Below are positions 2,560-60,952 of a stretch of 64,000 bases of DNA, in pieces (positions within the stretch are counted from its first letter, which is position 1; each line of letters starts with the position of its first letter). The stretch is taken from contig NC_013512.1 of the NCBI RefSeq assembly GCF_000024885.1, forward strand, positions 1,984,001 through 2,048,000, read 5' to 3'. This DNA is from Sulfurospirillum deleyianum DSM 6946. Its GTDB lineage: Bacteria > Campylobacterota > Campylobacteria > Campylobacterales > Sulfurospirillaceae. The notes below the pieces were generated by a model that was not told the DNA's origin, ran no database searches, and worked only from the letters and a program-made list of their open reading frames with translations. The position numbers and the translations under genes were made by a program.

Positions 2560-3633
2560 ATGAAAACCCTGCAACTTCTCTACGAAGTTTCTTGCAAAAA
2601 TAGTTTTTTTATTGATCGTAAAATCACGTTTGAGCATGCCAAAGTCATTCTGCATGGTCCTAGAAAAAGTGGAAAAACCCATCTTATTTTTGACCATCTT
2701 AGTCGCTATGAATCTAAAGAGTACCTCTACATAGACCTTGCAGACGAACGCATTGATAAGGCTGAAATTATCGACTATTTAGAGACATTTGTACGTCAAA
2801 ATTCGCTTCAACTTTTGGTCATTGAATCTTTTGATTTTTCCTTTACATTGCCCTATGTTCCTGAAATAATTCTAACAACACCCTTTACATGTAAAACGCT
2901 TGAGGGCTTTCATAACGACACACTCTATCCTTTGGATTTTGAAGAGTTTTTAGCCTTCGATAAAAAACACTCTAACATTGAACATCTTTTCAATCTTTAC
3001 ACCAACTATGGTACATTTCCACAGTACATTCAGCATGGTGAAAGCATTGAGGCAAAAAGTATTCAAGAATTGCTTCACATTCTCCTAAAAGAGAGTACCC
3101 GTTTTTTGGTCTATAAGCGTTTTTGTGAATTGCAAGGCACGAAAGTATCTCTTTTTCAAATCTACAACTATTTAAAAAGTGTTACAAAAATTTCCAAAGA
3201 TAAACTCTACGCCATTACCTCAGAGTTGGTCGATGAAAAACTCCTTTTTTTTGTGGAAAAATTTAACCAGCCTAATGCCAATAAAAAAGTTTTTTTACTT
3301 GATTTTACGTTTAAAGATGCCCTCACCTTTAAAAAAGATTTTTTAAGACGCTTTGAAAATATGGTGTTTTTAGAACTCATCAAACGGGATAAAAAAGTCT
3401 TCTATGAAGAGGGGATTGATTTTTATCTTCCAGAAGAATCGTTAGCGATTTTGTGTGTTGGATTTGCGACCACAGAGGCGATTGAGATGCGTTTACAAAA
3501 ACTGTTACCTACTTTTTGGTCTTTACATGTAAAGCGAGTTGAAGTGGTGACGTTAAGCAGTGAAAGCGCTAAAGATATTGAAGGTCTTAGTTTTTCCATT
3601 TTCCCTTTCTGGGAATGGGCATTGCAACTCTAA
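2560..3633 (+). CDS. P-loop ATPase of unknown role
   Basis: A 357-residue soluble protein with a clear Walker A motif, GPRKSGKT, at residues 33-40, and a plausible Walker B strand (LLVIESFDF, about residues 83-91). The middle and C-terminal parts look like the winged-helix and nuclease-like tail seen in AAA-type ATPases of the DUF4143 kind, but I cannot place the family firmly. It lies alone between the S10 operon and rnhB. Two TTACATGTAA palindromes fall inside it (2885 and 3523) and encode FTCK and LHVK. Its function is unknown; a housekeeping ATPase is a guess. Confidence 0.8.
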   Translation: MKTLQLLYEVSCKNSFFIDRKITFEHAKVILHGPRKSGKTHLIFDHLSRYESKEYLYIDLADERIDKAEIIDYLETFVRQNSLQLLVIESFDFSFTLPYVPEIILTTPFTCKTLEGFHNDTLYPLDFEEFLAFDKKHSNIEHLFNLYTNYGTFPQYIQHGESIEAKSIQELLHILLKESTRFLVYKRFCELQGTKVSLFQIYNYLKSVTKISKDKLYAITSELVDEKLLFFVEKFNQPNANKKVFLLDFTFKDALTFKKDFLRRFENMVFLELIKRDKKVFYEEGIDFYLPEESLAILCVGFATTEAIEMRLQKLLPTFWSLHVKRVEVVTLSSESAKDIEGLSFSIFPFWEWALQL

Positions 3634-3818
3634 TAGCGTTCTTACAGAATTCTTAACGTAGCCCTTAGAGCAAAGCTCAAAACGTAGTTTCTGTGAAAAG
3701 GCTACGCTAACGCTGAGTTTTCCTCGGTGGAATGCCCACGCACCCTTGGTGCTTTTCCTTCTTGCAAAATAGGTTTTGCAAGAAGTCTAATATCTTTACA
3801 TGTAAAAAGGAAAATGAA

Positions 3819-4367
3819 ATGTTATGTGGCATTGATGAAGCAGGAAGAGGTTGTTTAGCAGGACCTTTAGTGGTTGCGGGTGCGGTCTTAAAAGAACCTG
3901 TAAAAGGCTTAGCCGATTCAAAACAGCTGAGTGAAAAACAACGTGAAATTTTATTTGAGCGCTTACAAAATGCAGCGGAGTTTAAAATCGTCTTTTGTGA
4001 CCATGAAATGGTCGATACCAAAGGCTTGAGTGCCTGTTTAAAATACGCCATTGAAACCATCAAAGCACACTTTTGTGAGCATGAAATTTTAATGGATGGC
4101 AACTGTACCTTTGGTGTTTCGGGTATTTCAACGATGGTCAAAGCCGATGCGAAAGTGGCAGAAGTGAGTGCAGCGAGTATCTTAGCCAAAGTGAGCCGTG
4201 ATCGTTACATGTGTGACATTGCGCCCTCTTATCCAGAGTACGCTTTTGAGAAGCATAAAGGGTATGGAAGCGCTTTACATGTAAAGATGATCCAACAATT
4301 TGGCTATTGCGACATTCATCGTAAAAGCTTTAAACTTAAAGCCCTTTCACAACCCACTCTTTTTTAA
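3819..4367 (+). CDS. rnhB: Ribonuclease HII
   Basis: A 182-residue RNase HII, which cuts RNA in RNA-DNA hybrids and single ribonucleotides in DNA. The N-terminal MLCGIDEAGRGCLAGPLVVAG carries the catalytic D-E pair; the later ILMDG and a C-terminal KVSRDRYM are also typical. The frame is open for 29 codons further upstream, but the ATG at 3819 is chosen because the family begins at CGIDEAGRG and AAGGAAA lies just ahead of it. TTACATGTAA sits immediately upstream (3796) and again inside (4275). Confidence 0.95.
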   Translation: MLCGIDEAGRGCLAGPLVVAGAVLKEPVKGLADSKQLSEKQREILFERLQNAAEFKIVFCDHEMVDTKGLSACLKYAIETIKAHFCEHEILMDGNCTFGVSGISTMVKADAKVAEVSAASILAKVSRDRYMCDIAPSYPEYAFEKHKGYGSALHVKMIQQFGYCDIHRKSFKLKALSQPTLF

Positions 4368-4453
4368 AAGATGATAATTACAATCAAAACAAAGCTTAAC
4401 GAAAGGCTTTTTGCTCTATTATTCCAATAATAATTATCAAAAGCATGATAATT
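4368..4453. promoter_or_regulatory. Probable Fur-type iron operators upstream of feoAB
   Basis: The gap before feoA holds several GATAATT/AATTATC units typical of Fur boxes. The best is the inverted pair AATTATC (4432-4438) and GATAATT (4447-4453), preceded by AATAATAATTATC from 4426; another GATAATT lies at 4371-4377 just after rnhB. Iron-dependent repression of feoAB by Fur is established in relatives. Here the assignment rests on motif resemblance and position only. A weak AAAGC/GCTTT stem at about 4391-4410 may end rnhB transcription. Confidence 0.5.
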
Positions 4454-4480
4454 TAATCGTCATTTAAAAGGAATTTAGGG

Positions 4481-6861: not shown

Positions 6862-6862
6862 A

Positions 6863-6892: not shown

Positions 6893-7969
6893 TTACATGT
6901 AAATCTGTTTTAAATGCTCCATCGAAGTACCAAGATTTAGAAGTAATAAGTCTGCTATTACTAAAGCTGCCATCGACTCAGCCACCACACTGCCTCTAAC
7001 AGCAATACACGGATCATGCCTTCCTTTGAGGTTGCATGTTAAAGCGTGACCTTCTGTATCAATCGTCTCTTGAGAGAGAAAAATAGAAGGGGTGGGTTTA
7101 AAATAGACTTTACATGTAACGACATCGCCATTGCTCATACCGCCTAAAATGCCCCCACTGTGATTACTTACAAATCCACTTTGAGTGATGGCATCGTTAT
7201 TTTGTGAACCTTTGAGCCCTGAGGCATGAAACCCCTCACCAATCTCAACGCCTTTGACGCCATTAATGCCCATCATGGCATCCGCTAAAAGTGCGTCAAG
7301 CTTATAATACATCGGCTCACCTAGCCCAATAGGTGCACCCACAATCTGCACCAATGCCACACCGCCAATGGAATCATGCGCATTTTTCGCCTCTAAAATT
7401 TTCTCTTTTTGCGCCTCTTCAACACTCGCATCCAATGCGTAAATTTCACTGTGGCTGACACGTTCAAAATCATAACTTTGCGCCTCAATACCACCAATCG
7501 CACAAATGCCACTTTGTACCTTTACATGTAACGCATTTAAAAGCAGTTTTGCAACTGCCCCAGCGGCTACACGGGCTGCCGTTTCTCTAGCACTACTGCG
7601 TCCGCCACCCCTATAATCCCTGATGCCGTATTTGTGAAAATAAGTAAAATCCGCATGCCCTGGACGAAAAAGATTTTTGACGTTTTCATAATCCCCACTT
7701 TTTTGATTTTCATTGAAAATCACCATCGCAATAGGTGTTCCTGTGCTTTTTCCCTCAAACACCCCACTTAAAATCTCGACTTTATCGCCCTCTTTACGAG
7801 CCGTGGCAAATTTATTTTGCCCTGGTTTTCTGCGGTCTAGCTCACTTTGAATAAACACCTCATCAATACTAAGTCCTGCAGGTACGCCATCGACCACACA
7901 CCCAATCGCCCTTCCATGCGACTCTCCAAAAGTAGTAAAACAAAACCTTCGTCCAAATGTATTGCTCAT
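6893..7969 (-). CDS. aroC: Chorismate synthase
   Basis: A 358-residue chorismate synthase, the flavin-dependent last step of the shikimate pathway (EPSP to chorismate). Family signatures are visible: [21 protein letters not shown] near the N-terminus, then RPGHADFTY and [20 protein letters not shown]. It overlaps rnc by 4 bp and heads leftward in the block aroC-rnc-rnhA-TPR gene divergent from dnaG, an order I recall from Campylobacter jejuni. TTACATGTAA occurs at the gene end and at 7110 and 7522. Confidence 0.97.
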
Positions 7970-9082: not shown

Positions 9083-10100
9083 GCTGAACTTGAGTTAAAA
9101 GGGGATGAATCTTAGCGGTATGAATGCTTTGACAATGCGGACATCGGTAAAAATGGATAGGAAACACCTGCTTACACTCCATACACATATACTCAAATCC
9201 CAATGTTGCTTCTTGATATCCAGCGTGCTGTAACTCGCCTAAGACCTCCAAAGCAAAAGGAATCTGTTCCATTTTTTCATACGGAATAAGCCCCTTTGCC
9301 ATAGCAATAGCTCTTACCAAATCTTTGTTACATGTAAGAATATTATAAACCCTTTCATCCAAATACCATACAACATCCAGCATCTCTTCAAAGGGCAAAT
9401 CCTCAAAAAAGGAAGGCTCAATCACCATTCCATTTTCACACATAAATTCAAACAGCTTACGCTTTAAAAAAGGCTCTTCTTTGGCTAAAACTAAGAGTTG
9501 CTCTTTTTTCTCTTTATCACTTAAATGACTCTCTTTTAAAATCGCTAACGCCTTAAGGTAGAGACTTTGAAGGTGTACTTTTGCGCCCATCTCCTCAAGC
9601 GATTCTAAAACCTCTTGCGCTTTAGCATACTCTTGAAGTTGCTCATAAACCACACTTAAGTACTTTAAAGACTCTTCATTGCGAGGGTGCAGACGTAAAG
9701 ACTCTAAAAAAACATCCGAACTGCGGTGCAAAAATCCCGCTTTAAAGTAAATCTTTCCAAGCGTTGAGAGAAGATACTGCTTCTCATCTTTTCCCTTAAC
9801 CCGCTTAAGCGTTACCAAATAGATATTAATTGCTTTTTCATAATCCCCACCTTTTGCGTAAGCATGGGCTAGTAAGGCTAAAGATTCAAGAGGAATAGAA
9901 GCATCTTCGAGCAGTTTTTTATACTCATTTTCGTCGGTAACAATTTCAAACTTTTTCACAAATTTATCAATACTTTGCTTATCTTCTTTGCTTTTGAAGA
10001 TACCCCACCAATAGTTTGAAAAAGAGATAACAAAGACAATCGCAAATAAAATAATCACTCCAAAAAGTGGATCACGATACTCTATAAAAAAATTATCCAC
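9057..10100 (-). CDS. Membrane-anchored TPR protein with C-terminal zinc ribbon (LapB/YciM-like)
   Basis: A 347-residue protein with one N-terminal membrane helix (about residues 14-32), a TPR-rich middle (for example AHAYAKGGDYEKAINIYL, then STLGKIYFKAGFLHRSSDVF) and a C-terminal metal-binding knuckle, CMEC followed by CPHC 14 residues later. This architecture matches LapB/YciM, which in Enterobacteria guides LpxC degradation and LPS assembly. The role in Campylobacterota is not established here. It is divergent from dnaG and shares an operon with rnhA, rnc and aroC. A TTACATGTAA copy lies at 9328. Confidence 0.72.
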   Translation of the reverse strand: MDNFFIEYRDPLFGVIILFAIVFVISFSNYWWGIFKSKEDKQSIDKFVKKFEIVTDENEYKKLLEDASIPLESLALLAHAYAKGGDYEKAINIYLVTLKRVKGKDEKQYLLSTLGKIYFKAGFLHRSSDVFLESLRLHPRNEESLKYLSVVYEQLQEYAKAQEVLESLEEMGAKVHLQSLYLKALAILKESHLSDKEKKEQLLVLAKEEPFLKRKLFEFMCENGMVIEPSFFEDLPFEEMLDVVWYLDERVYNILTCNKDLVRAIAMAKGLIPYEKMEQIPFALEVLGELQHAGYQEATLGFEYMCMECKQVFPIHFYRCPHCQSIHTAKIHPLLTQVQHEENLSFL

Positions 10101-11821: not shown

Positions 11822-12782
11822 TGGTGGACTTGACAGTATGTTAGCTGTCAATGTTCTCGTTCAGCAAGGCATTGAAGTGATTGCCTTACATGTAAACATA
11901 GGTTTTGGTATTAAAGATGACCATTATGAAACACTTGAGCGCAGAGCTAAGCTCGCAGGGGCATGCCTTGAAGTCATTGATGTACGAGATGAATACCTTC
12001 AAAAAATCCTCTTTAGTCCAAAATATGGTTATGGGAAACAGTTCAATCCTTGCATTGATTGCCACGGGTTTATGTTTAGCGTTGCCAAATCACTTTTACC
12101 TCGCTATGGTGCCTCTTTTATTGCCACAGGAGAAGTGATCGCTCAACGTCCTATGAGTCAAAACAAAGATGCCCTCCAACTGGTCAAAAAACTTGCAAAC
12201 GATATGGAAGAAGAGCTCATCCTTCGCCCTCTGAGCGCCAAAGTGATGAAAGAGACAAAACCTGAGCGTGAAGGATGGGTCGATAGAAATCGCCTTTTAG
12301 ACCTCAATGGTCGAGGACGCCACAGACAACTTGAACTCGCTCAAGCCTTAGGCTGGGAAGATTACCCCTCTCCAGCAGGTGGCTGTTTGCTTACGGATGT
12401 CGCATTTACCGCACGTTTAAGAGATTTTATAACCTATGATTCGTTTAGCAAAGAAGATATTGATGTGCTCAAAAATGGACGTCATTTTCGTTTACCAGAT
12501 GGAGCGAAACTGGTTGTGGGAAGAAATGAAATGGAAAATAATTTTCTGGATACTTTAGAAAATTCCAAATTTAACCTTTTACATGTAAAGGAAGCGATGA
12601 GTGCTCCTAGTGCACTGCTTTCTTCCAACGCTAGTCCAGAAGATGAAGCTTTAGCCTGTCGTATTGTGCTCAGTTTTACCAAAGCATTACCCAAAGAAAC
12701 TTACACCCTTGCTATTAACACTAAGATGGTAAAATCATCTCCATTGGAAAGAAAAGAAGCGACAAAACCGTATCTTATATAG
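11799..12782 (+). CDS. PP-loop ATP pyrophosphatase, probable tRNA sulfurtransferase
   Basis: A 327-residue protein opening with a PP-loop, SGGLDS at residues 8-13, which activates a tRNA base or similar substrate by adenylation. Two cysteine-containing segments (PCIDCHGFMF and PAGGCLLTD) resemble catalytic cysteines of MnmA/ThiI-type thiolases. A C-terminal LPDGAKLVVGRNE segment looks like the small domain often fused to such enzymes. I chose the ATG at 11799, inside the dnaG end, because MKALVLFSGGLDS is the family start; the frame is open slightly further upstream. The exact substrate is uncertain. Confidence 0.75.
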   Translation: MKALVLFSGGLDSMLAVNVLVQQGIEVIALHVNIGFGIKDDHYETLERRAKLAGACLEVIDVRDEYLQKILFSPKYGYGKQFNPCIDCHGFMFSVAKSLLPRYGASFIATGEVIAQRPMSQNKDALQLVKKLANDMEEELILRPLSAKVMKETKPEREGWVDRNRLLDLNGRGRHRQLELAQALGWEDYPSPAGGCLLTDVAFTARLRDFITYDSFSKEDIDVLKNGRHFRLPDGAKLVVGRNEMENNFLDTLENSKFNLLHVKEAMSAPSALLSSNASPEDEALACRIVLSFTKALPKETYTLAINTKMVKSSPLERKEATKPYLI

Positions 12783-13826: not shown

Positions 13827-14834
13827 ATGATACAGTGCGAAAAAATTATTCACTCTTTGAATGTGGGGATTTTAATTATTGATGAGGATTTAACTCTCCA
13901 TTTTGTCAACAAATGGGTGGGCGTTCATGCTAATTTTGCACCTGAACACGCCATAGGAAAAAACCTTTTATCCCTCTTTGAGTTGGATGAAGATCGTCTC
14001 AAATCACTCAAACGTCACATTAAAACTGCTTTAACGCTTAAAAGTCCCTCTTTTTTTACCGCCGATGCCAATCACTATCTACTTCCCATGAAAAATTCGA
14101 TTACCACGAAATCTGTTTTTGAATTTATGCAGCAAGATATTACGATTTTGCCATACGATACCGCTGCTAGACACGTTACGCTTCTCATTTATGACCAAAC
14201 CTCTTTGATGGAAGAAAAAATGCGTTGCGATAAAGAGAGTCAAGCGCTTGAAAAAGCGGTCAAGACGGCTAATGCAACGATTAGAAAACTTGAGACAGCC
14301 AAGAATAAATTGATTAAACAGCGTGATATTATCTACCAACAAGCTCATTGTGACCACTTAACCTCACTGGCTAATCGTACCGTCCTCAATCAAAAGCTTC
14401 AACAACTTATCGACGAGGGAGCGCAAAGCGATAAAAAGTTTGGCATCCTCTTTTTGGACTTGGATAATTTTAAAGAAATTAACGACACTTTAGGACACGA
14501 TGTGGGTGATATGATCTTAATCCATGTCGCAAAGACACTGCTCTTATGTACCCGCAAAAGCGATACCGTAACCCGCTTTGGGGGTGATGAGTTTATTATC
14601 TTAATTGACAATGTCGATAATGAAGAAAATCTTAAAACCATTGCCGCAAAACTCGTGGAGACCATTGGACAACCACTTAAAATCCGAAATCATCATTTAC
14701 ATGTAACCGCAAGTATTGGTGTGAGTATCTTTCCAAAACACGGAAGCGACTTTAACCAACTTATTAAAAATGCAGATTTAGCGCTTTATTTGGCTAAAAA
14801 TGAGGGACGAGATACCTACCGCATTCAGTCCTAA
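13827..14834 (+). CDS. PAS-GGDEF diguanylate cyclase
   Basis: A 335-residue cytoplasmic protein: a PAS-like N-terminus (residues 1-110, starting LNVGILIIDEDLTLHFVN), a coiled segment (about 125-165), then a GGDEF domain. The active site is RFGGDEFIIL, and the inhibitory I-site RKSD lies five residues before it, so product inhibition by c-di-GMP is likely retained. It makes cyclic di-GMP from GTP. It follows the CheC-like gene by 2 bp and may link chemotaxis signals to c-di-GMP. The gene ends inside a hairpin. A TTACATGTAA copy at 14697 encodes LHVT. Confidence 0.92.
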   Translation: MIQCEKIIHSLNVGILIIDEDLTLHFVNKWVGVHANFAPEHAIGKNLLSLFELDEDRLKSLKRHIKTALTLKSPSFFTADANHYLLPMKNSITTKSVFEFMQQDITILPYDTAARHVTLLIYDQTSLMEEKMRCDKESQALEKAVKTANATIRKLETAKNKLIKQRDIIYQQAHCDHLTSLANRTVLNQKLQQLIDEGAQSDKKFGILFLDLDNFKEINDTLGHDVGDMILIHVAKTLLLCTRKSDTVTRFGGDEFIILIDNVDNEENLKTIAAKLVETIGQPLKIRNHHLHVTASIGVSIFPKHGSDFNQLIKNADLALYLAKNEGRDTYRIQS

Positions 14835-14866: not shown

Positions 14867-16153
14867 TTAAAAAAACTCTATCTCATCATCGTGACTTAAA
14901 TCCAAACTCTTCTCATCGAAAATGGCTTCGATTTGAATGCACGAAGAGAGTAAAGAAGAATCTAAATAGTGCACATCCCGTGCAATTTGAGTAATAAAAA
15001 CATTTTCTCTCCACGACGCTAAATCATGCAGTAAATTTAACAGCATAGCACTGAGTCGTTTCGCTTTTTCACTATCAAGCTGCTCCACCGTTAACGTATC
15101 TAAAAAGTTAATCAACGTCTGAATCGCAAAACCCAAATGCTCAAACTCTAAGAGTTCCGCCAAAATATCCGCATACTCTTGAAAATTTTCAGAAATAATC
15201 ATTAAATTACGTTTATTTGGCTCTTTTTCAAAATCCAAAATCGCTCTATCTGTCTCATCATTCAATGCTTCTAAACTATCAATTTTTGACATAAACGAAA
15301 TCGCCGTATTATTGACATATTCTGTGGCACTTAAAAGATTATCATGTGTTTTAGAGAGAATTTCTTTTGCCTCATCACTCACTTCCACGGAGCCATTGCT
15401 TTTTTTCATCACCTTATCAAGCTGAAATGCCAACATTTCATGAGAGAGAATATATTTGGCATTAGGAAAATTTCGTAGAAGAATATTTTTAATAATATTG
15501 CTTCGAAGTGGCTTTACATGTAAAAGCATCATATACAACTTTTCTTCATTCTCCTCCACCACAATCGCACACTCCTGCGCATGTTTAAGCAGCCAAAGAG
15601 AAAAACCATACATCAATCGCACACAATCACTCAAATCAATCACGCTTTTTTCATTATTAAGCCAATAATCCCAAAATTCAGCCAATGCACTCTCATCTTC
15701 AATATGAAACGTCGTACTACGGCGAAACACATGTGTATTGAAAGGGTTAAGGGCTTTAGGAAATTTTTGCATCGGTTTATGGCGCAGTGCGATAATGCGC
15801 AAATACTGCCTAATGCGCTGTAAAAAATGCTCCGCATGCAGCGGTTTGGTGAGATAATCCTCCGCACCTAATGAGAGCATTTTATTTTTAGAAGTCTCAT
15901 CATCCAGCGCACTAATAGCAATCACCATGCTTTTTTTATGCAGTTGCTTAATAAATTTTGTTGCCTCAAATCCATCCAGATTGGGCATCATAATATCCAT
16001 AAAAATCAAATCATAATTTTGCTTTGCGCACATCTCAACAGCGATTTGTCCATCTTCCGCCTCATACACTTCGATGCCTTCAACCTCTTCTAAGAGAAGG
16101 TTGAGTGTGAGTCTGTTATTGTCATTGTCATCAACAATTAAAACCTTAACCAT
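14867..16153 (-). CDS. Response regulator with long unclassified output region
   Basis: A 428-residue protein. Residues 1-120 are a receiver (IVDDNDNN, phospho-Asp in IFMDIMMPNLDG, Ser/Thr in VIAISALD, Lys in TKPL). Residues 130-428 match no output domain I know: helical, with few conserved glycines, no HTH, GGDEF, EAL or HD motif. It overlaps the upstream PAS kinase gene by 8 bp, so the two probably form a pair. It is last in the che operon as transcribed leftward. TTACATGTAA at 15514 encodes part of LLHVKPL. Confidence 0.85.
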   Translation of the reverse strand: MVKVLIVDDNDNNRLTLNLLLEEVEGIEVYEAEDGQIAVEMCAKQNYDLIFMDIMMPNLDGFEATKFIKQLHKKSMVIAISALDDETSKNKMLSLGAEDYLTKPLHAEHFLQRIRQYLRIIALRHKPMQKFPKALNPFNTHVFRRSTTFHIEDESALAEFWDYWLNNEKSVIDLSDCVRLMYGFSLWLLKHAQECAIVVEENEEKLYMMLLHVKPLRSNIIKNILLRNFPNAKYILSHEMLAFQLDKVMKKSNGSVEVSDEAKEILSKTHDNLLSATEYVNNTAISFMSKIDSLEALNDETDRAILDFEKEPNKRNLMIISENFQEYADILAELLEFEHLGFAIQTLINFLDTLTVEQLDSEKAKRLSAMLLNLLHDLASWRENVFITQIARDVHYLDSSLLSSCIQIEAIFDEKSLDLSHDDEIEFF

Positions 16154-23229: not shown

Positions 23230-23256
23230 TTACATGTAAAGAAGTTTTACATGTAA
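23230..23256. repeat. Tandem pair of TTACATGTAA palindromes between mcp and the STAS-like gene
   Basis: Two perfect TTACATGTAA cores lie at 23230-23239 and 23247-23256, separated by 7 bp and together forming a larger inverted arrangement. They fall between the stop of the MCP gene (23263) and the ATG of the STAS-like gene (23190). This is the only tandem pair seen in the window. A hairpin joining the two copies is possible. Confidence 0.85.
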
Positions 23257-26281: not shown

Positions 26282-26803
26282 ATGAAATTACACCTTACAT
26301 CTAATTGTATTGTCATTAAAATAGCCGAAAACTCTCCCTTTTTTTTACATGTAAAAACATTTTTGATGCAAAAACTAAGCCGTTCTTTTTGCATTAATCA
26401 AACACTTATTAACCTCTATAACCCTTTAGAATCTGAAAAAAGAAAAGCTTTCTTGACCAGAGTCTATACCATTTGCGCCCATATCTCCCAAACGCAAAAT
26501 CCCTCATTTTTAGAAAAATTACTTCTCTCATATGATAAACCTATCAAAATCGTACACCAAACATCAAAACCTATTAAACATGTTCATACCCTGCGTCATT
26601 TTTACACTCTTTTAAATGCCCATCACGAAGAGACCCTACACGTTATTCGCAAAAAATACCTTCATCTAATCAAACAATACCATCCTGACCACCTTCAAAA
26701 TGAAAACGAAACAATGCGAAAACGCCATTTGGAAAGGTTTTATCAAATTCAAGAAGCTTACACGACAATACGAGCAGAAAAAACGAAACCACTGGTTGCA
26801 TAA
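26282..26803 (+). CDS. J-domain (DnaJ-like) protein
   Basis: A 173-residue protein whose C-terminal half (residues 105-170) is a J-domain with the invariant HPD in IKQYHPDHLQ, flanked by helices II and III ending FYQIQEAYTTIRAE. J-domains stimulate DnaK ATPase. There is no Gly/Phe linker or zinc domain, so it is a specialised co-chaperone with an N-terminal domain of unknown function. TTACATGTAA at 26345 encodes FLHVKTF near its start. It stands alone, immediately upstream of the tRNA-Ala gene. Confidence 0.85.
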   Translation: MKLHLTSNCIVIKIAENSPFFLHVKTFLMQKLSRSFCINQTLINLYNPLESEKRKAFLTRVYTICAHISQTQNPSFLEKLLLSYDKPIKIVHQTSKPIKHVHTLRHFYTLLNAHHEETLHVIRKKYLHLIKQYHPDHLQNENETMRKRHLERFYQIQEAYTTIRAEKTKPLVA

Positions 26804-33988: not shown

Positions 33989-34202
33989 AATTTTTAGCGG
34001 TATTTTTTACGGTAATACATAATATCATATACACTAAAAACCATCAAAAAAGATTTGAGTGTTTGAGTGTCTCAACATTTTTCTTACTTCGCTATCAAAT
34101 TGTTTGAGAATTATTTTTACATGTAAAGGGTTTTAAATCACACTGTAACGGAGATAAGCAAAGTTAAGAAAATAATCTTAAAGAAAAAAGTTTAAAGAAG
34201 TT

Positions 34203-38650: not shown

Positions 38651-38679
38651 TTAGAAAATGTGTTTTACATGTAAAGGCC

Positions 38680-41636: not shown

Positions 41637-41782
41637 TTTGTCTCCTTAAAAGTTAAACGTGGTGGAAGTTTAAACCTCTAAAGGGATTTGAAAATGACTT
41701 TTTGGAATTTTTTTTAAAAAAAGCTTGAAATAAGAGAATTAATTAAAATATATAAAATTTTAAGGAAAAATGTTTTACATGT

Positions 41783-41804
41783 AAAGAGGGAAGAGTCCCT
41801 CTTT
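41783..41804 (-). terminator. Terminator between the two aspartase genes
   Basis: AAAGAGGGA and TCCCTCTTT form a 9-bp stem with a 4-nt loop directly after the stop of aspartase copy 2 (41807) on the minus strand. A TTTACATGTAAA palindrome shares its AAA foot. It suggests that each aspartase gene has its own transcript. The rest of the 170-bp gap is AT-rich and likely holds the copy 1 promoter. Confidence 0.8.
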
Positions 41805-43237: not shown

Positions 43238-43312
43238 GGTTGGACTCCTTGAGCAAATAGAATAGCTCTATTATAAGCGGAGTTTGTACAAAATAATCTT
43301 TACATGTAAAAC

Positions 43313-43969
43313 TTATTTTTTGGCAATGCCCACTTTTTGGGGGCGAATACTTAAATCGGTAATGACCCCGTTTACATGTAATACATCCCACACGCTTTGA
43401 GCGATGGTTTCAGGGAGCAGATGGGTTGATTCATCCTCACTGGGTTTAAAATGAAGGGCGTCAAAAAAAGGCGTTTGGGTCATATCTGGGTTAATGGATG
43501 TGACTCTCACACCGCTTTTTCGTACCTCTTCAAAGAGACAATGCCCAAAGTCTCGAAGACCGCTTTTGGTGGCGGTGTAGAGTGCTGAGTATTTGGCGTG
43601 ACGAGTCGCTTCAATGGAAGTAATGTTGATGATATGACCGCTTTGTTTTTGTAAGGAGCGCAAACACAAAGAACTTAAAATAATAGGCGCAGTGAGGTTG
43701 ATATCAATAAGGTTTTTGATTTTGGAAGGGCTAATGGTCTCGTGCGGATCAAACACTCCCACACCCGCACAGTTAATAAGCACATCGACCTCATGACTTT
43801 TTAGCCACGCTTTGACTTTTTTTTCAAGCGCTTCAGTATCTCGCAAATCACACACAATCTCCGCTTCGTTTCGCCCGATATTAAAGACTTCATACTCGTT
43901 ACATGTAAGAATGTTTTTTATCGCCTTGCCAATGCCACTGCTTCCGCCACTCATTAAAACCGTTTTCAT
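43313..43969 (-). CDS. Short-chain dehydrogenase/reductase
   Basis: A 218-residue SDR oxidoreductase. The cofactor motif is MSGGSSGIGKAI, the structural NCAG follows, and the active-site YxxxK is in YTATKSG with the Ser in NITSIEA. The short Rossmann protein likely uses NADPH; the substrate is unknown. It lies 14 bp after the probable restriction gene on the same strand. Palindrome copies at 43372 and 43899 lie inside it. Confidence 0.88.
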   Translation of the reverse strand: MKTVLMSGGSSGIGKAIKNILTCNEYEVFNIGRNEAEIVCDLRDTEALEKKVKAWLKSHEVDVLINCAGVGVFDPHETISPSKIKNLIDINLTAPIILSSLCLRSLQKQSGHIINITSIEATRHAKYSALYTATKSGLRDFGHCLFEEVRKSGVRVTSINPDMTQTPFFDALHFKPSEDESTHLLPETIAQSVWDVLHVNGVITDLSIRPQKVGIAKK

Positions 43970-45036: not shown

Positions 45037-46232
45037 TAGGCAACCTTTTTGGTGTTCTTTTTGGTCTCCATCTCATCGCACAATGCCAAAAATGCTTCTA
45101 ATTTTTTAGCGATGTGGTACGCTAAGAGTGGAGGAACAGCATTGCCGATAAGTTTATACGCCTCTGATGCCCCTAATTTTTCGCTCACAAAAGCGTAATC
45201 ATCGGGAAAAGTTTGCAGACGGGCACATTCACGCACCGATAAGCGACGCTCAGGCAGATGGTACTCTTCTTCTATGAGACCTCCATGCTCTTTTGAAAGT
45301 CGCCTGAACTCTATATTGCCATGATGTTCCGCACGAATGGTTGGGGCTAGTTTGTTGGGATTGATTTCGGTTTGCCCTTGGCAATGCTTACCAAACCATT
45401 TAGCTTTTGAGTATTTTTGATGGCTTAAATCCTCACTTTGCTCAGGTTCACACAAATCAAATAGGGCGTCTTTGACGGTTACAAAGTCATGTTTGATGTC
45501 GTGTGTTGGTTCAGGATAGAGACTGAATTCGCCATTTTGAAGCTTTACATGTAAATCTTCTGAGAGAATATCTTTACGCACACCTATAAAAATGATGCGC
45601 TCTCTTGTTTGCGGTACGCCATAGTTTCCCGCATGAAGTACGTTTGGGTCAAGAACAACGTAGCCTTCGCCGATAGTGCGAAAATCTTGCGTCATAATCT
45701 CTTTAACGTCTTTCATGCTGACTAAACCTTTAACGTTCTCAGCGATAAAAATCTTAGGTTTAATTAATGCGATGGCTTCTCTAAGCCAAAAGTAAAGCAT
45801 ACCACGCGATTCGATGGTAGGCGTGTCTATGGCGTTACGGTAAGCGTTTTTGTGTGTTTTGTGAGAGTCAAAACCCTTGCGTTTCCCCGCAACCGAAAAA
45901 TCTTGACACGGAAAACCTCCTGTCACCACATCTGCGTTAGGGAATGTAAACGTACCTTCTTTAGCCTTTTTTACCAGTTCAACAATGCTTTCAAGATGAA
46001 AAACATTATCCCTTTGAAAGTAATACTCCCACGCTTTTTTTGCAGAGGGTTTGATGTCGCAAGCAAAAACGGTTTGAAAGGCTGTTGGTGCAAGTTTAAC
46101 AAAATTTTTGTGACGTTCTTTTATCCATGTTTTGTCTTTAACACTCTTCGCTTTAACCCAAAAGTCACCCTCTAAGCCCAAATCAAGTCCACCACAACCT
46201 GAAAAAAATGAGACAACTTTTAGAGGTTTCAT
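45036..46232 (-). CDS. DNA (cytosine-5)-methyltransferase
   Basis: A 398-residue C5-methylase. Motifs in order: I (VSFFSGCGGLDLGLEG), IV with the catalytic Cys (GGFPCQDFSVAGKRKG), VI (FIAENVKGL), VIII (QTRERIIFIGVR), IX (RRLSVRECARLQTFPDDY) and X (KLIGNAVPPLLA). The open frame runs 87 codons upstream into the next gene's end, but MKPLKVVSFFSG at 46232 is the natural start. Target recognition lies between VIII and IX. It pairs with the probable restriction enzyme. TTACATGTAA at 45545 encodes LHVK. Confidence 0.95.
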   Translation of the reverse strand: MKPLKVVSFFSGCGGLDLGLEGDFWVKAKSVKDKTWIKERHKNFVKLAPTAFQTVFACDIKPSAKKAWEYYFQRDNVFHLESIVELVKKAKEGTFTFPNADVVTGGFPCQDFSVAGKRKGFDSHKTHKNAYRNAIDTPTIESRGMLYFWLREAIALIKPKIFIAENVKGLVSMKDVKEIMTQDFRTIGEGYVVLDPNVLHAGNYGVPQTRERIIFIGVRKDILSEDLHVKLQNGEFSLYPEPTHDIKHDFVTVKDALFDLCEPEQSEDLSHQKYSKAKWFGKHCQGQTEINPNKLAPTIRAEHHGNIEFRRLSKEHGGLIEEEYHLPERRLSVRECARLQTFPDDYAFVSEKLGASEAYKLIGNAVPPLLAYHIAKKLEAFLALCDEMETKKNTKKVA

Positions 46233-46266: not shown

Positions 46267-47511
46267 TCATTTTCTGATTTTAACTCTAATTTTTTGCATA
46301 TATGCCTTTGCCATCGCTTCTTCAAAGGCTTCGTTGTTGGCGTACTCATGCCCAAAGACTTTTTGCCATAAACTCTCATCTTCCATGCAAAGATAGAAAA
46401 AAACCTCGGTGTGCCACGGTGCAAAAGCCTTGTAAAGTGTGCTAAACATCTCCTCTTTAAAGCTGAGGGGATAGGAGTATTTGCCACTCGCATCCACTAA
46501 AGGCATTTGCAAAATTTTACTGCTTTGCGCACGCAGTCGTATCTTTTTCAACACAGGCTTAATGAAGGTCAGCGTGCCCATGGAGATAAGCGCAACCTCT
46601 TTACATGTAAAGCGCTCAAGTAGCTCTTTAACAATGGCGGTGTACGCCTCTTTCCACCCTTCAAATAAGACGATGGGATGAAAATGAAAGCCTACCAATA
46701 CGCCTTTATCCGCCAGCGCTCTAGCACTTTGGATACGCTCTGTTAGGCTTGAAGAGCGTTTTTCCTCGTTGTCGATGATAACCTGAGGGTTAAGCGACCA
46801 CGTACAAAGAACATTTTTAGGCACTTCATGTTCTAAGAGATAGCTAATGTTGTCCGACTTGCTTTTAAACTCCAAAATGACATTGGGATGTTTTCGTGCA
46901 AAGCTAAAAAGCGCTTCTAAAACGCCCACACGATTCCCCCACATTAAAGAATCCGATGACTGTCCCGTGCCAATGTGGTAGGTTTTAGTAGGGTCAAGCT
47001 CCAAACGCTCCAACTTTTGGGCAAAGTTTTTATCAAATGTGATGGTGTTGTTTTTGTAAAAACTCTGAATGGAACAGTACGAACAGTCAAACCCACAACT
47101 CTCCACAGCATCCAAAGTCATCAGGTTGCAACAGCGTGTTTTAGGCGATGCCACGGGACAAGAGCCAAGCCCTAGATGCTCCTTTTCCACCTCTTCGATG
47201 TTAAAACGCTCCTTTTTAAAATCGTTGGGCGTTTTGGGGTAGGTTTTGAGGGTGTTTTTTAAGCGCTCATAGGCTTGTTGCAAGGCTAAAAACGCCTCTT
47301 TTTTGCTCTCTTTATCCACCCAAAAGGCTTCTATATTCTCATCCCACATCTGCATATCAACCGCCATGATGATGAACTGCTGAATTTGCGAAAAGCTCAA
47401 ATGATACGCTAAGGCTTTGGTTTTTACAAAGCTTTGTGTATTTACATGTAAACTTTGAAAGGGGGTGTTTTCGCACGCTTTTTCAAAGTGTTCAAGGTTC
47501 GTATCTAACAT
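46267..47511 (-). CDS. Spore-photoproduct-lyase-like radical SAM protein
   Basis: A 414-residue radical SAM protein with the cluster motif CGFDCSYC and flanking TLDAVESCG, IGTGQSSDSL and ILEFKSKSDNISYLL, as in the spore photoproduct lyase (SPL) family. SPL repairs UV thymine dimers in spores, but this organism group does not sporulate, so its substrate is open; DNA or nucleotide repair is a guess. The ATG at 47511 has GGGAGAAAT ahead and lies 20 bp inside the upstream gene. It is followed by the methylase gene after 34 bp. Confidence 0.82.
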   Translation of the reverse strand: MLDTNLEHFEKACENTPFQSLHVNTQSFVKTKALAYHLSFSQIQQFIIMAVDMQMWDENIEAFWVDKESKKEAFLALQQAYERLKNTLKTYPKTPNDFKKERFNIEEVEKEHLGLGSCPVASPKTRCCNLMTLDAVESCGFDCSYCSIQSFYKNNTITFDKNFAQKLERLELDPTKTYHIGTGQSSDSLMWGNRVGVLEALFSFARKHPNVILEFKSKSDNISYLLEHEVPKNVLCTWSLNPQVIIDNEEKRSSSLTERIQSARALADKGVLVGFHFHPIVLFEGWKEAYTAIVKELLERFTCKEVALISMGTLTFIKPVLKKIRLRAQSSKILQMPLVDASGKYSYPLSFKEEMFSTLYKAFAPWHTEVFFYLCMEDESLWQKVFGHEYANNEAFEEAMAKAYMQKIRVKIRK

Positions 47512-48028
47512 ATTTCTCCCATAATTTAATGCTTTTAGTGACCCAATTTCCCACGTCTGTTTTGCTAGGAATTGTATCTTCCAAATGGTCTGAGACCACT
47601 TTAAACACATAGGTTTTGATAGGGTTTGGAAGGGTTTGGATGAAAATGTCCGCTTCCATATCCACCAAAGTCGTCTTTACATGTAAGGCATCTTCGAGCG
47701 CCTTTGGGTGTGAAGAACAGCTCGCAAAAGGCATACCCAAACCCTCCTGTGTGGTGCAAAAAAGTGTGCCTTTAGCAATGCTTCTATCGACACACCCCGC
47801 AATGCCAATATTTATCGCAACGTGCGGTTCATAGAGACTCAGCGCATACAAAAGCGCCTCTTTGGAATTTTGGCTTCCCATGCCTGAGACGATGAGAGCG
47901 ATGTGTTCGTTTTCGTAAAGATTGAACGGTTGCTTTGCTGTACATCTCAGTTTAAAATGCCCAATAATCGGCTTTGCTTCCGCCACTAGTGCGGTGTGAA
48001 TGAGGGTGTGAATGTTTCTAGTAGACAT
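47492..48028 (-). CDS. Nucleoside phosphorylase/nucleosidase-like protein
   Basis: A 178-residue protein that resembles a shortened nucleosidase of the MTA/SAH type: HTALVAEAKPII at the start, LIVSGMGSQNSKEAL, AINIGIAGCVDRS, and LVDMEADIF in place of the usual substrate-binding VEMEGAA. It overlaps the RelE toxin gene upstream by 11 bp and the radical SAM gene downstream by 20 bp. Shared expression with an SPL-like enzyme hints at removal of a base or salvage of SAM products. Activity is unproven. ATG 48034 is an alternative start. Confidence 0.65.
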   Translation of the reverse strand: MSTRNIHTLIHTALVAEAKPIIGHFKLRCTAKQPFNLYENEHIALIVSGMGSQNSKEALLYALSLYEPHVAINIGIAGCVDRSIAKGTLFCTTQEGLGMPFASCSSHPKALEDALHVKTTLVDMEADIFIQTLPNPIKTYVFKVVSDHLEDTIPSKTDVGNWVTKSIKLWEKYVRYEP

Positions 48029-49471: not shown

Positions 49472-49531
49472 AAAGCCTAAAATAGAGTAAAATATGAAAA
49501 TTACCATCTTTACATGTAAAAAGAGGATGCC

Positions 49532-55366: not shown

Positions 55367-55529
55367 TGTTTTCCTTTGTGAAAAATATGTGCTGTGTGAG
55401 GTTTACATGTAAAGAAGTTAAGTAGAAAAGAAGAGTGCTACTTCATGTATGTCTAAGCCTTAGACCAACAGCATTTTGAGTATTGTAAACTAGTAAAGAT
55501 TAAAAATAGGTAAAAAGTTTTTTACCAAA

Positions 55530-55940
55530 TTAGGAGGAAATTTCTCCGTTTATCAAAAATTTTTTCCCTACTCGTCCTATATTGTCAAGCGTTACATGTA
55601 ACGCTTCATCAATGACTTCATCATGTTCAACACGCAATAATCAGGGTGTATGCTTGCTTCCTTCAAGAGGCATGGTTTGAGTGAAACGGCAAAAAAGAGC
55701 ACATCGGCTTGATTCTACCATGGGAGGGTATTTTGGTAAGCATCGTTTCAATGCGATTTTAAAGGCTTTAAACTCACTGTGTGTGTAAGGAAGTTCTGTG
55801 GCGATTTGAATGAGAGGGGAATAAAATAGCTAAACAAGGCTAGGTTACACACGACCTCATGCGATGGGACGAGGCGTGATGGTGTTAGAGATAAGTTTAT
55901 AAATACTGGTTTCTTCTAAGTTTTAGAAGTCTAAAAGCAT
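55530..55940 (-). pseudogene. Decayed flavin reductase-like gene
   Basis: Reading leftward from ATG 55938-55940 the DNA spells MLLDF-stop-NLEETSIYKLISNTITPRPIA-stop, then, after a gap, IATELPYTHSEFKAF, PKYPPMVES, LFCRFTQTMPLEGSKHT-stop, and, in another frame, ARVEHDEVIDEALHVTL and DNIGRVGKKFLINGEISS with a TAA at 55530. SNTITPRPIA and IGRVG are marks of the FMN-binding split-barrel flavin reductases, normally about 200 residues. Stops, a frameshift and an internal deletion of about 200 bp show it is dead. Palindrome copy 55592 lies in it. Confidence 0.78.
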
Positions 55941-57778: not shown

Positions 57779-59488
57779 ATGAAAGATTTACTCTCGAAAA
57801 TTAACGATCTTAAGCAAGAAATCACACTGCTTAAAAGCCAGAATAGGCGTATTTTAGAGTGTGCTGTTACTGAAAAAAAAGCGCTAGAACGCCTTGCCAA
57901 AAAAGCGCAACTCTATTTTAATAACTCTGATCTTGCCTACATCGTGTTGGATGAAAAGCAATGCATTGTCGATGTCAATGAGACGTTTACGCACCTTTTT
58001 GGTTACACCAAAGAAGAAGTTTTAGGTTTACATATCAGTACCCTTTTTACGTCGCAAAAGCGATATGAAAAGTGGTGGCACGTACATTTAAATGATGGTG
58101 ATTTTGAGCATGTGAGTAATTTAGAGTACCGTTTGTACACCAAAGAGGGCATGGCATTTTGGGCAGAACTTTTTGGTAAAAAATTTATGGATGAGGAAAA
58201 AGCGCTGAGCATTTGGAGTGTTCGCGATATCTCCTTACGCATCAAGTCTCGTAATACCATTGCAAAACTCAATCTCAAATATCAAAAACAGTTACGTGAC
58301 ATGGAAACGATTTTAAATATTATTCCTGTGCCTGTCTTTATTAAAGATCGCTATTTACGTTACATCGGATGCAGTCGTGCTTTTTGTGCCTATTTTGGCT
58401 TGAAAAAAGAAGATATTCTTGGAAGAACCGTTTTTGATCTCTATCCTCTTGAAATTGCCAGCAGACTCTATGAAAAAGATCAAGAGATGCTTAATGTCAG
58501 TCATCAAACCTATAAAATAAATACAATATCGCCACTGACTCAGCAAGAAGTAACATTAGAAATTCAAAAAAAACGTATGATGCGCAATGCTGTCTTTGAT
58601 GGCTTTGTTGGTGTTTTCATTGATGTCACAGAGGTGGAAAAACAAGAAGTTTATCTGCAAAACCGTATTCGAGAAGAGGTGGATAAAAACCTTAAAATCC
58701 AAGCCATCTACCAAGAGGAGATGGTACGTAATGCCAAATTTAGTACTATTGGACGGATGGCAGCGGGTATTACCCATGAGATTAATACGCCTTTGACGTA
58801 TATCAAGGGTAATTTTGAGATGCTCATCGATGATATTATGGCGATTGTACCTGATGGTACACGTAAAAATGTCATGCTCAAAGATAGCCAATCGATTCAA
58901 GAGGGCATTGAACGTATTGAGAGTATTATTGGAACGATGAGAGAAGCATCACAAAAAAGCCATGAGCAAAAAGAGATACTAAATATGTACGAACTTCTTT
59001 GTGCTTCCCTTACCCTTTGCTACCATCGTTCAAAGCAAATTGTTACCATTCATCTGAATGAAAAAATTTTTGATCTGAACTTTTCAAAAGATGAATACCA
59101 CGTTACATGTAACGTTCAAAAACAGCGTATCGAGCAAGTATTTGTGATTATTTTAAACAATGCTTTAGATGAACTAATAAAGATTGAATCCTTTGAAAAA
59201 CGCTCTTTACATGTAACAATTTTTCAAGAACATGAAAAAGTTATAGTACGTTTTTGTGATAATGGTGGAGGCATTGATGCTGCAATTTTACCTCATATTT
59301 TTGAGCCATTTGAAAGTACTAAAATGAGCTCTGGCATTGGGATTGGACTCAACATCGCTCAACAAATTGTAATTCAAAATGAGGGCGAAATTTGTGCTTT
59401 TAATGAGGATGAAGGTGCCGTTTTTGAAGTGCACTTACCTTTGGTAAAAGAAGCAGAGACACTTTTAGATAAAAGGCGTTTCATATAA
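57779..59488 (+). CDS. PAS-PAS sensor histidine kinase
   Basis: A 569-residue soluble kinase: coiled coil (1-45), PAS 1 (about 45-165, VDVNETFTHLFGYTKEEVLG), PAS 2 (about 180-300, LGRTVFDLYPLE), linker, HisKA with AAGITHEINTPLTYIKG (phospho-His) and HATPase (NNALDELIKI, FCDNGGGID, SGIGIGLNIAQQI). The signal is unknown. It is co-transcribed with the CZB receptor and receiver. Two TTACATGTAA copies, 59103 and 59207, lie in the ATPase domain only 104 bp apart, one coding YHVTCNV and one SLHVTI. Confidence 0.92.
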   Translation: MKDLLSKINDLKQEITLLKSQNRRILECAVTEKKALERLAKKAQLYFNNSDLAYIVLDEKQCIVDVNETFTHLFGYTKEEVLGLHISTLFTSQKRYEKWWHVHLNDGDFEHVSNLEYRLYTKEGMAFWAELFGKKFMDEEKALSIWSVRDISLRIKSRNTIAKLNLKYQKQLRDMETILNIIPVPVFIKDRYLRYIGCSRAFCAYFGLKKEDILGRTVFDLYPLEIASRLYEKDQEMLNVSHQTYKINTISPLTQQEVTLEIQKKRMMRNAVFDGFVGVFIDVTEVEKQEVYLQNRIREEVDKNLKIQAIYQEEMVRNAKFSTIGRMAAGITHEINTPLTYIKGNFEMLIDDIMAIVPDGTRKNVMLKDSQSIQEGIERIESIIGTMREASQKSHEQKEILNMYELLCASLTLCYHRSKQIVTIHLNEKIFDLNFSKDEYHVTCNVQKQRIEQVFVIILNNALDELIKIESFEKRSLHVTIFQEHEKVIVRFCDNGGGIDAAILPHIFEPFESTKMSSGIGIGLNIAQQIVIQNEGEICAFNEDEGAVFEVHLPLVKEAETLLDKRRFI

Positions 59489-59543
59489 AATCTCATGACG
59501 CTTATGTTACAATCTCGCATTATTTTTACATGTAGGATGTTTT

Positions 59544-60311
59544 GTGGATATTTTTCAATCTGTCATTATGGGAATTGTTGAGGGGTTTACGGAGTTTTTG
59601 CCTGTTTCTTCGACGGGGCATATGATTATTGTGGGCGATTGGTTGGGGCTAAAGCAAGATAATTTTATCAAAGCGTATGAGATTATCATCCAGTTTGCGG
59701 CGATTTTAGCTGTGGTTTTAAACTACAAAGAGAAATTTTCCCCTAAAAAAATCAATCTTTGGATGAAACTTGCCGTAGCGTTTGTACCTCTAGGTGCGGT
59801 GGGATTTTTATTTGCCAAGCAAGTCAAGGCAATGTTTAGCGTTGAAATCGTAGCACTGATGTTTATCATTGGGGGCATCATCTTTTTAGCGGTTGAAAAG
59901 TTTTACAAACCCAAAGAGCACTTTGTGGATGATGTGGAAAAGGTGAGTTACAAGCAAGCCCTTTGGATTGGGATTGCTCAGATTTTTGCTCTGATTCCTG
60001 GAACAAGTAGAGCGGGTTCGACGATTATTGGAGCGATGTTAGTGGGACTCACACGCAAAGCGAGTGCTGAGTTCTCCTTTTTACTTGCCTTTCCTGTGAT
60101 GTGCGCTACCACGGGCTATGACATCCTCAAACACCACAATGAACTCCTTATGGAGGGTAATTTTACCGCTTTGGCGGTGGGATTTGTCGTCTCATTTATA
60201 GTGGCGTATGCGACGATTAAACTCTTTTTAAAATTTTTAGAGCGCTTTACCTTTGTGAGCTTTGGCATTTATCGCATTCTTTTTGGCATAGCGCTTCTAC
60301 TTTATGTTTAA
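59544..60311 (+). CDS. uppP: Undecaprenyl-diphosphatase
   Basis: A 255-residue integral membrane enzyme that converts C55-PP to C55-P for cell-wall synthesis; it also gives bacitracin resistance when abundant. Motifs EGFTEFLPVSSTGHM and PGTSRAGSTIIGAML are the two active-site loops. It starts with GTG, with AGGATG shortly ahead. A one-base variant of the palindrome lies just upstream. The stop overlaps that of the convergent DUF134 gene by 4 bp. Confidence 0.95.
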   Translation: MDIFQSVIMGIVEGFTEFLPVSSTGHMIIVGDWLGLKQDNFIKAYEIIIQFAAILAVVLNYKEKFSPKKINLWMKLAVAFVPLGAVGFLFAKQVKAMFSVEIVALMFIIGGIIFLAVEKFYKPKEHFVDDVEKVSYKQALWIGIAQIFALIPGTSRAGSTIIGAMLVGLTRKASAEFSFLLAFPVMCATTGYDILKHHNELLMEGNFTALAVGFVVSFIVAYATIKLFLKFLERFTFVSFGIYRILFGIALLLYV

Positions 60312-60892
60312 AAAAGCTTTGGTATCTCATCTTCACTGATCACATCTTTCTCAATCACATGAATGCCTCTGGCACTAAGAGCGTTTTTGAGCCCTTGCCC
60401 GAGGCTTTTTGTTAAAAAAAAGTTTACCCCATGCTCATGCAAAAGTGGCGCTAACACTAGAGGGGGTTTTGCCTCTTTTTCATGTGCGGGATTTAGAAGA
60501 ATTTCTCGTTTAACAATCCTATGATTTTCGACGCTAAAGATACATACATACGTATCTTTGATATTCAGAGATTCAAAATGCGTTGTTTCATTGCTACAAA
60601 ACGCCACCACATAACGCTCTCGTTTTGTTCCCAAATGCAACTCATATCCACCTAAAAGTGCTCGTGCCACTTTTTGACGGGCGGATTTGATAATACGTGC
60701 AAAGGTAGGACGGGAAACTTCCATCCTCAACGCCGCCTCTTCTTGATACAAATCCAATAAATCCATCAAATAAAGCGCTTCTACCTCTTCAGGAATTAAA
60801 GAAATACTCTCATCGTGTTTTGTTCCCTTCGGGTCAAAACAGGTGATTAAAGGCTGATAAGAGGTGACACGATGGCATTTTTGACGGGACAT
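60308..60892 (-). CDS. DUF134-type HTH regulator with NifX/NifB-like C-terminus
   Basis: A 194-residue protein. The N-terminal half is a DUF134 helix-turn-helix (EVEALYLMDLLDLYQEEAAL, then VSRPTFARIIKSARQKVA), and the C-terminal half is a NifX/NifB-like dinitrogenase-cofactor fold that may sense a metal cluster. It faces the NifX-like gene across 121 bp that contain two palindromic operators, and is the obvious candidate repressor of that gene. DUF134 proteins are often found beside such domains. Confidence 0.85.
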   Translation of the reverse strand: MSRQKCHRVTSYQPLITCFDPKGTKHDESISLIPEEVEALYLMDLLDLYQEEAALRMEVSRPTFARIIKSARQKVARALLGGYELHLGTKRERYVVAFCSNETTHFESLNIKDTYVCIFSVENHRIVKREILLNPAHEKEAKPPLVLAPLLHEHGVNFFLTKSLGQGLKNALSARGIHVIEKDVISEDEIPKLF

Positions 60893-60952
60893 ACAACAAT
60901 CCTTTTTTTACATGTAATGCAGCAATACTAACATAAAAGGTTTTAAATATTA

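What the first reader, a model, noticed from the sequence alone, without database searches (positions are those of the whole stretch)
2885..60917. Highly iterated palindrome TTACATGTAA across the core genome
At least 31 perfect copies of a 10-bp palindrome in 64 kb, many extended to TTTACATGTAAA, against an expectation of roughly 0.2 from base composition. They occur inside genes in several frames and between genes on both strands, so they are not operators of one regulon. The behaviour recalls HIP1 of cyanobacteria or DNA-uptake and chromosome-organising sites. I know of no described element of this sequence in Campylobacterota.
Basis: partly seen in the sequence, partly recalled or inferred. 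Interest (0 to 1): 0.88.

Follow-up and report, generated by a model that had tools for sequence, protein, structure and literature searches.

The report
Genome-wide palindromic self-DNA mark in Sulfurospirillum
About 1,100 near-identical copies of a short mirror-image DNA word, TTACATGTAA, are spread along this bacterium's chromosome and kept intact while the surrounding DNA changes; they behave like the self-recognition tags some bacteria use when taking up DNA, and the spelling of the tag changes together with one DNA-methylating enzyme.

Summary
Copies are even around the chromosome, lie in genes and (about fourfold denser) between genes, and are perfectly conserved in 16/17 and 31/34 aligned positions in relatives at 79-84% identity. 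Single-mismatch variants in the ACATGT core are at background (29 seen, 28.4 expected). The element is a family: core ACATGT, with flanks that differ by lineage, found in most Sulfurospirillaceae and patchily in Sulfurimonas-type and Campylobacter-type families; at least two relatives have lost it. Perfect copies far outnumbering near-misses, origin by substitution, clustering after stop codons, hairpin pairs and dialects are hallmarks of DNA uptake sequences. Unlike those, it is a perfect palindrome, and its dialect follows the lineage of a solitary adenine methyltransferase: strict-TTACATGTAA genomes that have the gene share one clade, while S. cavolei carries another lineage and relaxed flanks. 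But some site-rich genomes lack that gene, so its role is unproven. MutL is absent, excluding the published HIP1 repair mechanism. Best reading: a palindromic, probably methylation-linked self-DNA (uptake) signal, not described in the literature I could search.

The parts
2885..2894 (.). TTACATGTAA, inside ORF 2560-3633
3523..3532 (.). TTACATGTAA, inside ORF 2560-3633
3796..3805 (.). TTACATGTAA, inside RNase HII gene
4275..4284 (.). TTACATGTAA, inside RNase HII gene
6893..6902 (.). TTACATGTAA, overlaps the stop codon of chorismate synthase
7110..7119 (.). TTACATGTAA, inside chorismate synthase gene
7522..7531 (.). TTACATGTAA, inside chorismate synthase gene
9328..9337 (.). TTACATGTAA, inside ORF 9057-10100
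11886..11895 (.). TTACATGTAA, inside NFACT-R gene 11784-12782
12579..12588 (.). TTACATGTAA, inside NFACT-R gene 11784-12782
14697..14706 (.). TTACATGTAA, inside ORF 13827-14834
15514..15523 (.). TTACATGTAA, inside ORF 14867-16153
23230..23256 (.). two copies (23230-23239 and 23247-23256), intergenic pair that can fold into a 14-bp hairpin
26345..26354 (.). TTACATGTAA, inside ORF 26282-26803
34117..34126 (.). TTACATGTAA, intergenic
38665..38674 (.). TTACATGTAA, intergenic
41775..41784 (.). TTACATGTAA, intergenic
43300..43309 (.). TTACATGTAA, intergenic
43372..43381 (.). TTACATGTAA, inside short-chain dehydrogenase gene 43313-43969
43899..43908 (.). TTACATGTAA, inside short-chain dehydrogenase gene 43313-43969
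45545..45554 (.). TTACATGTAA, inside C5 cytosine methyltransferase gene 45036-46493
46601..46610 (.). TTACATGTAA, inside ORF 46267-47610 (spore photoproduct lyase-like)
47442..47451 (.). TTACATGTAA, inside ORF 46267-47610
47677..47686 (.). TTACATGTAA, inside ORF 47492-48073
49510..49519 (.). TTACATGTAA, intergenic, 12 bp before ORF 49532
55403..55412 (.). TTACATGTAA, intergenic
55592..55601 (.). TTACATGTAA, intergenic
59103..59112 (.). TTACATGTAA, inside PAS sensor kinase gene 57779-59488
59207..59216 (.). TTACATGTAA, inside PAS sensor kinase gene 57779-59488
60908..60917 (.). TTACATGTAA, intergenic

Best explanation
TTACATGTAA is the local dialect of a chromosome-wide self-DNA signal whose fixed core is ACATGT. 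Shown: it arose by substitution in place, is held at one copy per about 2 kb, is kept almost free of core variants, decays when the keeping agent is lost, and changes its flanks between lineages together with a solitary D12 adenine methyltransferase. Inferred: that enzyme (related, I believe, to the CATG enzyme HpyIM) methylates the central CATG, and the natural-transformation machinery prefers DNA carrying the (methylated) site, as C. jejuni imports only DNA methylated by CtsM at RAATTY. Repeated uptake and recombination then spread perfect copies and erase damaged ones, as with Haemophilus USS and Neisseria DUS.
For: Density of 1 per 2.1 kb, close to the 1.15-1.5 kb spacing of DUS. In 824 kb, 406 perfect copies against 76 with one mismatch, core variants at background; an excess of perfect over singly mismatched copies is described as peculiar to USS/DUS and unlike regulator sites. 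Lineage-specific copies line up with near-match sequence, mostly substitutions. 16/17 and 31/34 positions conserved where random AT-rich 10-mers are 27% and 35% identical, with no gradient of divergence around sites. Intergenic excess, median 23 bp after a stop, densest between convergent genes, and pairs forming 13-15 bp hairpins, as described for DUS. Sparse on two S. diekertiae plasmids (4 per 40 kb), no host-like density in the viral contigs sampled, 2 copies in a 30% GC stretch, none across an insertion-sequence region in the window. Dialects track methyltransferase clades: strict clade 100/98 with strict/ACATGT ratio 0.63-0.73 (10 genomes), second clade 96/94 with 0.02-0.28 (9 genomes), including within-genus contrasts. 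The three clearest decaying genomes, G020, G028 and G033, lack the ~325-aa gene. ComEC is present in 45 of 46 genomes.
Against: Known USS/DUS are not perfect palindromes. Site-rich G168 (complete genome), G035, G391, G032 and G024 (a MAG) lack the ~325-aa methyltransferase, and the core looks maintained in G024 and G032 and not strongly decaying in the others. G010, G201 and G263 have the gene without strong ACATGT enrichment, and the family is common in Helicobacter without it. ComEC is also present in the decayed genomes, so competence genes do not explain the losses. No uptake, binding or methylation data exist here. The specificity of the enzyme is not tested: its relation to HpyIM/M.NlaIII is recalled, no sequence of either was compared.
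Confidence: 0.45

Rival explanations
1. A HIP1-type epigenetic housekeeping site: the solitary methyltransferase marks ACATGT and the mark serves replication, repair or nucleoid processes; sites are kept because each stretch of chromosome needs one, not because of DNA uptake.
For: Perfect palindrome around CATG like HIP1 around GATC/CGATCG; orphan enzyme without a neighbouring endonuclease; dialect follows enzyme clade; as with HIP1, some genomes have many sites but no enzyme; even spacing through the chromosome.
Against: MutL is absent from all 35 genomes tested while 11 of 14 control genomes have it, so the published MutS/MutL ratchet cannot run. The mark or enzyme is lost in several lineages, so it is not essential. 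Terminator-like pairs and plasmid depletion fit uptake signals better.
Confidence: 0.27
2. Binding sites of an unidentified dimeric nucleoid-associated protein that compacts or structures the chromosome; the methyltransferase association is incidental.
For: Twofold symmetric motif of 10-14 bp with graded flanks; sites present and core maintained in some genomes without the methyltransferase.
Against: No enrichment or depletion at origin or terminus; perfect copies far exceed single-mismatch copies, unlike protein binding sites as discussed in the USS literature; flank change co-varies with the enzyme.
Confidence: 0.18
3. By-product of a mutational or gene-conversion bias with no function.
For: Sites replace synonymous codons; HIP sequences have been proposed to be such by-products.
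Against: Core mutants are essentially absent in maintained genomes yet common in G028; copies also impose amino acids (LHV five times over expectation), a cost that a neutral by-product would hardly sustain; no divergence gradient around sites.
Confidence: 0.07

Closest known systems
DNA uptake sequences (DUS) of Neisseriaceae and USS of Pasteurellaceae
   Same: About one copy per 1-2 kb, perfect copies outnumber single mismatches, arise by substitution, conserved in position, enriched after stop codons, inverted pairs able to fold as terminators, lineage dialects around a fixed core.
   Different: This one is a perfect palindrome, varies together with an adenine methyltransferase, and no uptake has been shown; no ComP/ComN-like receptor was looked for.
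HIP1 (GCGATCGC) and alternate HIPs of cyanobacteria
   Same: Iterated palindrome containing the presumed target of an orphan methyltransferase; alternative spellings track methyltransferases; exceptions without the enzyme exist.
   Different: Other sequence, other phylum, centred on CATG rather than the GC-rich HIPs, and the hosts lack MutL, which the HIP1 model needs.
CtsM-methylated RAATTY of Campylobacter jejuni
   Same: Same order; a solitary adenine methyltransferase marks a palindromic motif, and only marked DNA is imported.
   Different: RAATTY is abundant anyway (about 28,000 motifs per C. coli genome). Campylobacter genomes hold 33%-identical ~372-aa homologues of the enzyme; I did not show that these are CtsM.
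HpyIM / M.NlaIII (CATG adenine methyltransferase)
   Same: HpyIM targets CATG and is highly conserved in H. pylori, and Helicobacter-type genomes carry relatives (~50% identity) of the enzyme here.
   Different: Family assignment rests on memory; HpyIM is paired with the IceA endonuclease and no iterated TTACATGTAA is seen in that family.

Membership tests
DUS/USS | Hundreds to thousands of copies spread over the chromosome, in genes and between them | tested here: met
   1,099 copies; 63% in ORFs
DUS/USS | More perfect copies than singly mismatched copies | tested here: met
   406 perfect vs 76 single-mismatch in 824 kb
DUS/USS | Arises by substitution, positions conserved between species | tested here: met
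DUS/USS | Close inverted pairs downstream of genes acting as terminators | tested here: inconclusive
   hairpin pairs and convergent-region excess found; termination activity not tested
DUS/USS | Increases DNA binding, uptake or transformation | not testable with these tools
   needs a wet-lab assay
DUS/USS | Cognate receptor (ComP, ComN or other) | not tested
   searches exhausted; only ComEC was tested
HIP (cyanobacterial type) | Highly iterated palindrome, dominant oligomer of the genome | tested here: met
HIP (cyanobacterial type) | Methyltransferase for an internal sequence present where the HIP is frequent | tested here: inconclusive
   present in most strict genomes but absent in site-rich G168, G035, G024; specificity untested
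HIP (cyanobacterial type) | MutS/MutL-type mismatch repair as maintenance mechanism (Elhai model) | tested here: not met
   MutL_C absent in 35/35 genomes; MutS not tested
MatS / SlmA / Noc chromosome-organising sites | Confined to, or excluded from, the terminus region | tested here: not met
   even density in 41 stretches spanning the skew switch
Operators of one regulator | Located upstream of genes, with degenerate sequence | tested here: not met
   63% inside ORFs, sharp consensus
Mobile or inserted repeat (REP, MITE) | Present as an insertion relative to relatives lacking it | tested here: not met
   most orthologous positions without the site align without a gap at the site

The most novel reading that the evidence does not exclude
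A new class of self-DNA signal: a palindromic uptake or recognition sequence written by a solitary adenine methyltransferase, so that replacing the enzyme rewrites the spelling of a thousand sites across the chromosome; a bridge between HIPs, DUS/USS and the CtsM system.
Probability: 0.35. Interest if true: 0.9.

Novelty: new variant of a known kind. Interest (0 to 1): 0.76.

Why it matters
The function of HIP palindromes has been open for decades. This group offers an independent case with natural replicates: gain, loss, decay and dialect change within one genus, in bacteria without MutL, so the standing HIP1 model can be set aside here and a methylation/uptake model tested directly. It also predicts a barrier to gene exchange between Sulfurospirillum lineages of different dialect, including those that dechlorinate pollutants.

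Tried and rejected
Methyltransferase families PF01555 and the C5 enzyme in the window (45036-46493): absent from own genome or not conserved, so not the writer. Loss of ComEC as the cause of site loss: ComEC is nearly everywhere. Regular spacing: gaps are close to Poisson, counts per 20 kb only slightly under-dispersed. Phage carriage: no viral contig sampled has host-like density. Protein constraint as the cause: in genomes that lost the site several positions keep LHV or LHI with other codons. Solved-structure and NCBIfam matches for the methyltransferase: none. A Fisher test of decay against gene absence was computed but is not relied on: the genomes are related and the call for genomes with few copies (G039, G040) is ambiguous.
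Full report
OBSERVATION. The window holds 31 exact TTACATGTAA (expected 0.11). It lies at 1,984,001-2,048,000 of a closed 2,306,351-bp genome with 1,099 copies; the reversed word occurs 3 times. In 824 kb read from this genome (window plus 38 stretches) there are 406 copies against 1.2 expected from an order-3 Markov model. Weaker preferences extend it to CTTTACATGTAAAG.

ANATOMY. 257 of 406 copies lie in predicted ORFs (88% of the DNA) and 149 between them, so intergenic DNA is about fourfold denser. In genes only the frames allowed by the built-in TAA stop occur: 161 copies read LHV, 90 read xTC[K/N], and 6 form the end of a gene as YM-stop. 161 of 195 LHV tripeptides come from the palindrome and LHV is five times more frequent than expected, so the DNA element shapes protein sequence. 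Intergenic copies sit a median of 23 bp after a stop codon and are densest between convergent genes (2.6 per kb against 1.6 elsewhere between genes); 18 pairs lie within 40 bp and several extend their arms to 13-15 bp hairpins with energies of -13 to -18 kcal/mol. Copies per 20 kb are even around the chromosome, including both replichores and the skew switch; the one poor stretch (2 copies) has 29.5% GC. In the window the longest gap spans insertion-sequence genes; the second, of nearly equal length, spans a chemotaxis cluster.

CONSERVATION AND SHARPNESS. Against two relatives at 79% and 84% identity, 16 of 17 and 31 of 34 own copies are perfect in the relative, where random AT-rich 10-mers are identical in 27% and 35% of cases; at about 75% identity roughly half are shared. 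Divergence is flat around the sites. Positions unique to one species mostly align with related sequences one or more substitutions away, with few gaps, so copies arise in place. Single-mismatch variants are almost confined to the two outer positions; in the six-base core 29 are seen and 28.4 expected. That excess of perfect copies over near-misses is the attribute singled out in the literature as shared by USS and DUS and unlike regulator sites (PMC1626085).

DISTRIBUTION AND DIALECTS. Within the family, 44 genomes range from 6 to 1,496 copies; in the rest of the phylum most have 0-10, with scattered rich genomes (340-380 copies in G156, G168, G391 and G381; 1,059 in G361). Counting the core instead shows the true family: own 1,516 ACATGT against 390 of the reversed word; G221 2,143/398 with only 96 TTACATGTAA; G354 1,350/411 with 77; G021 2,031/330 with 411. 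Flank spectra show strict TT..AA in own, G013, G027, G016, G014 and G024 and relaxed flanks in G021, G025, G032 and G043. G020 and G028 are at or near background. In G028 core variants reach 0.66 of the perfect copies, a real decay; in own, G024, G032 and G021 they stay at background although flanks differ. Core position-5 variants counted over 66 genomes single out G028, G020 and G033 as decaying. At several lost positions G020 and G028 keep the amino acids LHV or LHI with other codons, so protein constraint does not hold the palindrome. Two S. diekertiae plasmids carry 4 copies per 40 kb, and no viral contig sampled has host-like density.

THE METHYLTRANSFERASE. Own genome has one D12 adenine methyltransferase of this kind, solitary, between a sensor kinase and a transglutaminase-like gene, with intact DLFSGSG and DPPYN motifs. 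Its family is widespread in the phylum, about 50% identical in Helicobacter-type genomes and 33% in Campylobacter-type genomes. I believe it is the M.NlaIII/HpyIM (CATG) family; HpyIM's CATG target is documented (PMC4450513), the relationship is from memory. In a tree of 34 members, the enzymes of 14 strict genomes form one clade (100/98). G021 (S. cavolei) and G025 belong to the same genus but carry an enzyme from another clade (96/94) whose host genomes have relaxed flanks: strict/ACATGT 0.63-0.73 in ten genomes of the first clade, 0.02-0.28 in nine of the second, no overlap. Genus confounds most of this; the contrasts inside genera (G021 vs the rest of g1; G043 0.28 vs G042 0.53 in g5; G037 0.07 vs G038 0.37 in g4) point the same way. 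Against a simple rule: G168, G035, G391, G032 and G024 are site-rich without the gene (G024 is a metagenome assembly, G168 a complete genome), and G010, G201 and G263 have it without strong enrichment.

MECHANISM. Shown: a sharply maintained core, dialects, decay in some lineages, co-variation with the enzyme. Inferred: the enzyme or a linked factor specifies the spelling, and the sites serve recognition of own DNA, most likely during natural transformation. C. jejuni, in the same order, imports only DNA methylated by CtsM at RAATTY (PMC10046745, PMC8627207). DUS share the spacing, the post-stop and hairpin arrangement and the dialects (PMC2397512, PMC3630211). The HIP1 model of Elhai (PMC4390886) needs MutL-type mismatch repair; MutL is absent from all 35 genomes tested, with 11 of 14 controls positive. 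ComEC is present almost everywhere, also in genomes that lost the sites, so it neither supports nor refutes uptake.

NOVELTY. No paper in the library names this element in Campylobacterota; subscription papers and preprints were not searched. It works like a DUS/USS and looks like a HIP; membership in either cannot be claimed without uptake or methylation data. I rate it a new variant of a known kind.

Noticed in passing
L016: 505-7645 (G000:C1 about 900,500-907,650): CRISPR-like array of about 110 repeats with unit CTCGAACCGACACAAGATTTGTATTTAAAC.
   Followed up: no
window 45036-46493: C5 cytosine methyltransferase; no close relative in 43 other genomes of the family, so probably recently acquired.
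   Followed up: partly
window 28743-32232: IS21-type istB and integrase genes next to a DDE transposase, inside the longest site-free gap.
   Followed up: partly
824 kb of own genome (window and L001-L038): Other over-represented palindromes: TGAAATTTCA 14 seen vs 2.4 expected, CCGCACGTGCGG 4 vs about 0.
   Followed up: no
L031 (G000:C1:1,800,001-1,820,000): Low-GC stretch (22-37%) with 2 palindromes; likely foreign island.
   Followed up: no
L255 1692-2732; L256 6933-7737: S. diekertiae plasmids carry a second D12 methyltransferase (49% identical to the chromosomal type of own genome), intact on pSDCE1 and in pieces on pSDIE1.
   Followed up: no
genomes of group g19, family f2: TGTACA is strongly avoided (2-20 copies per genome in many) while ACATGT has about 180.
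   Followed up: no
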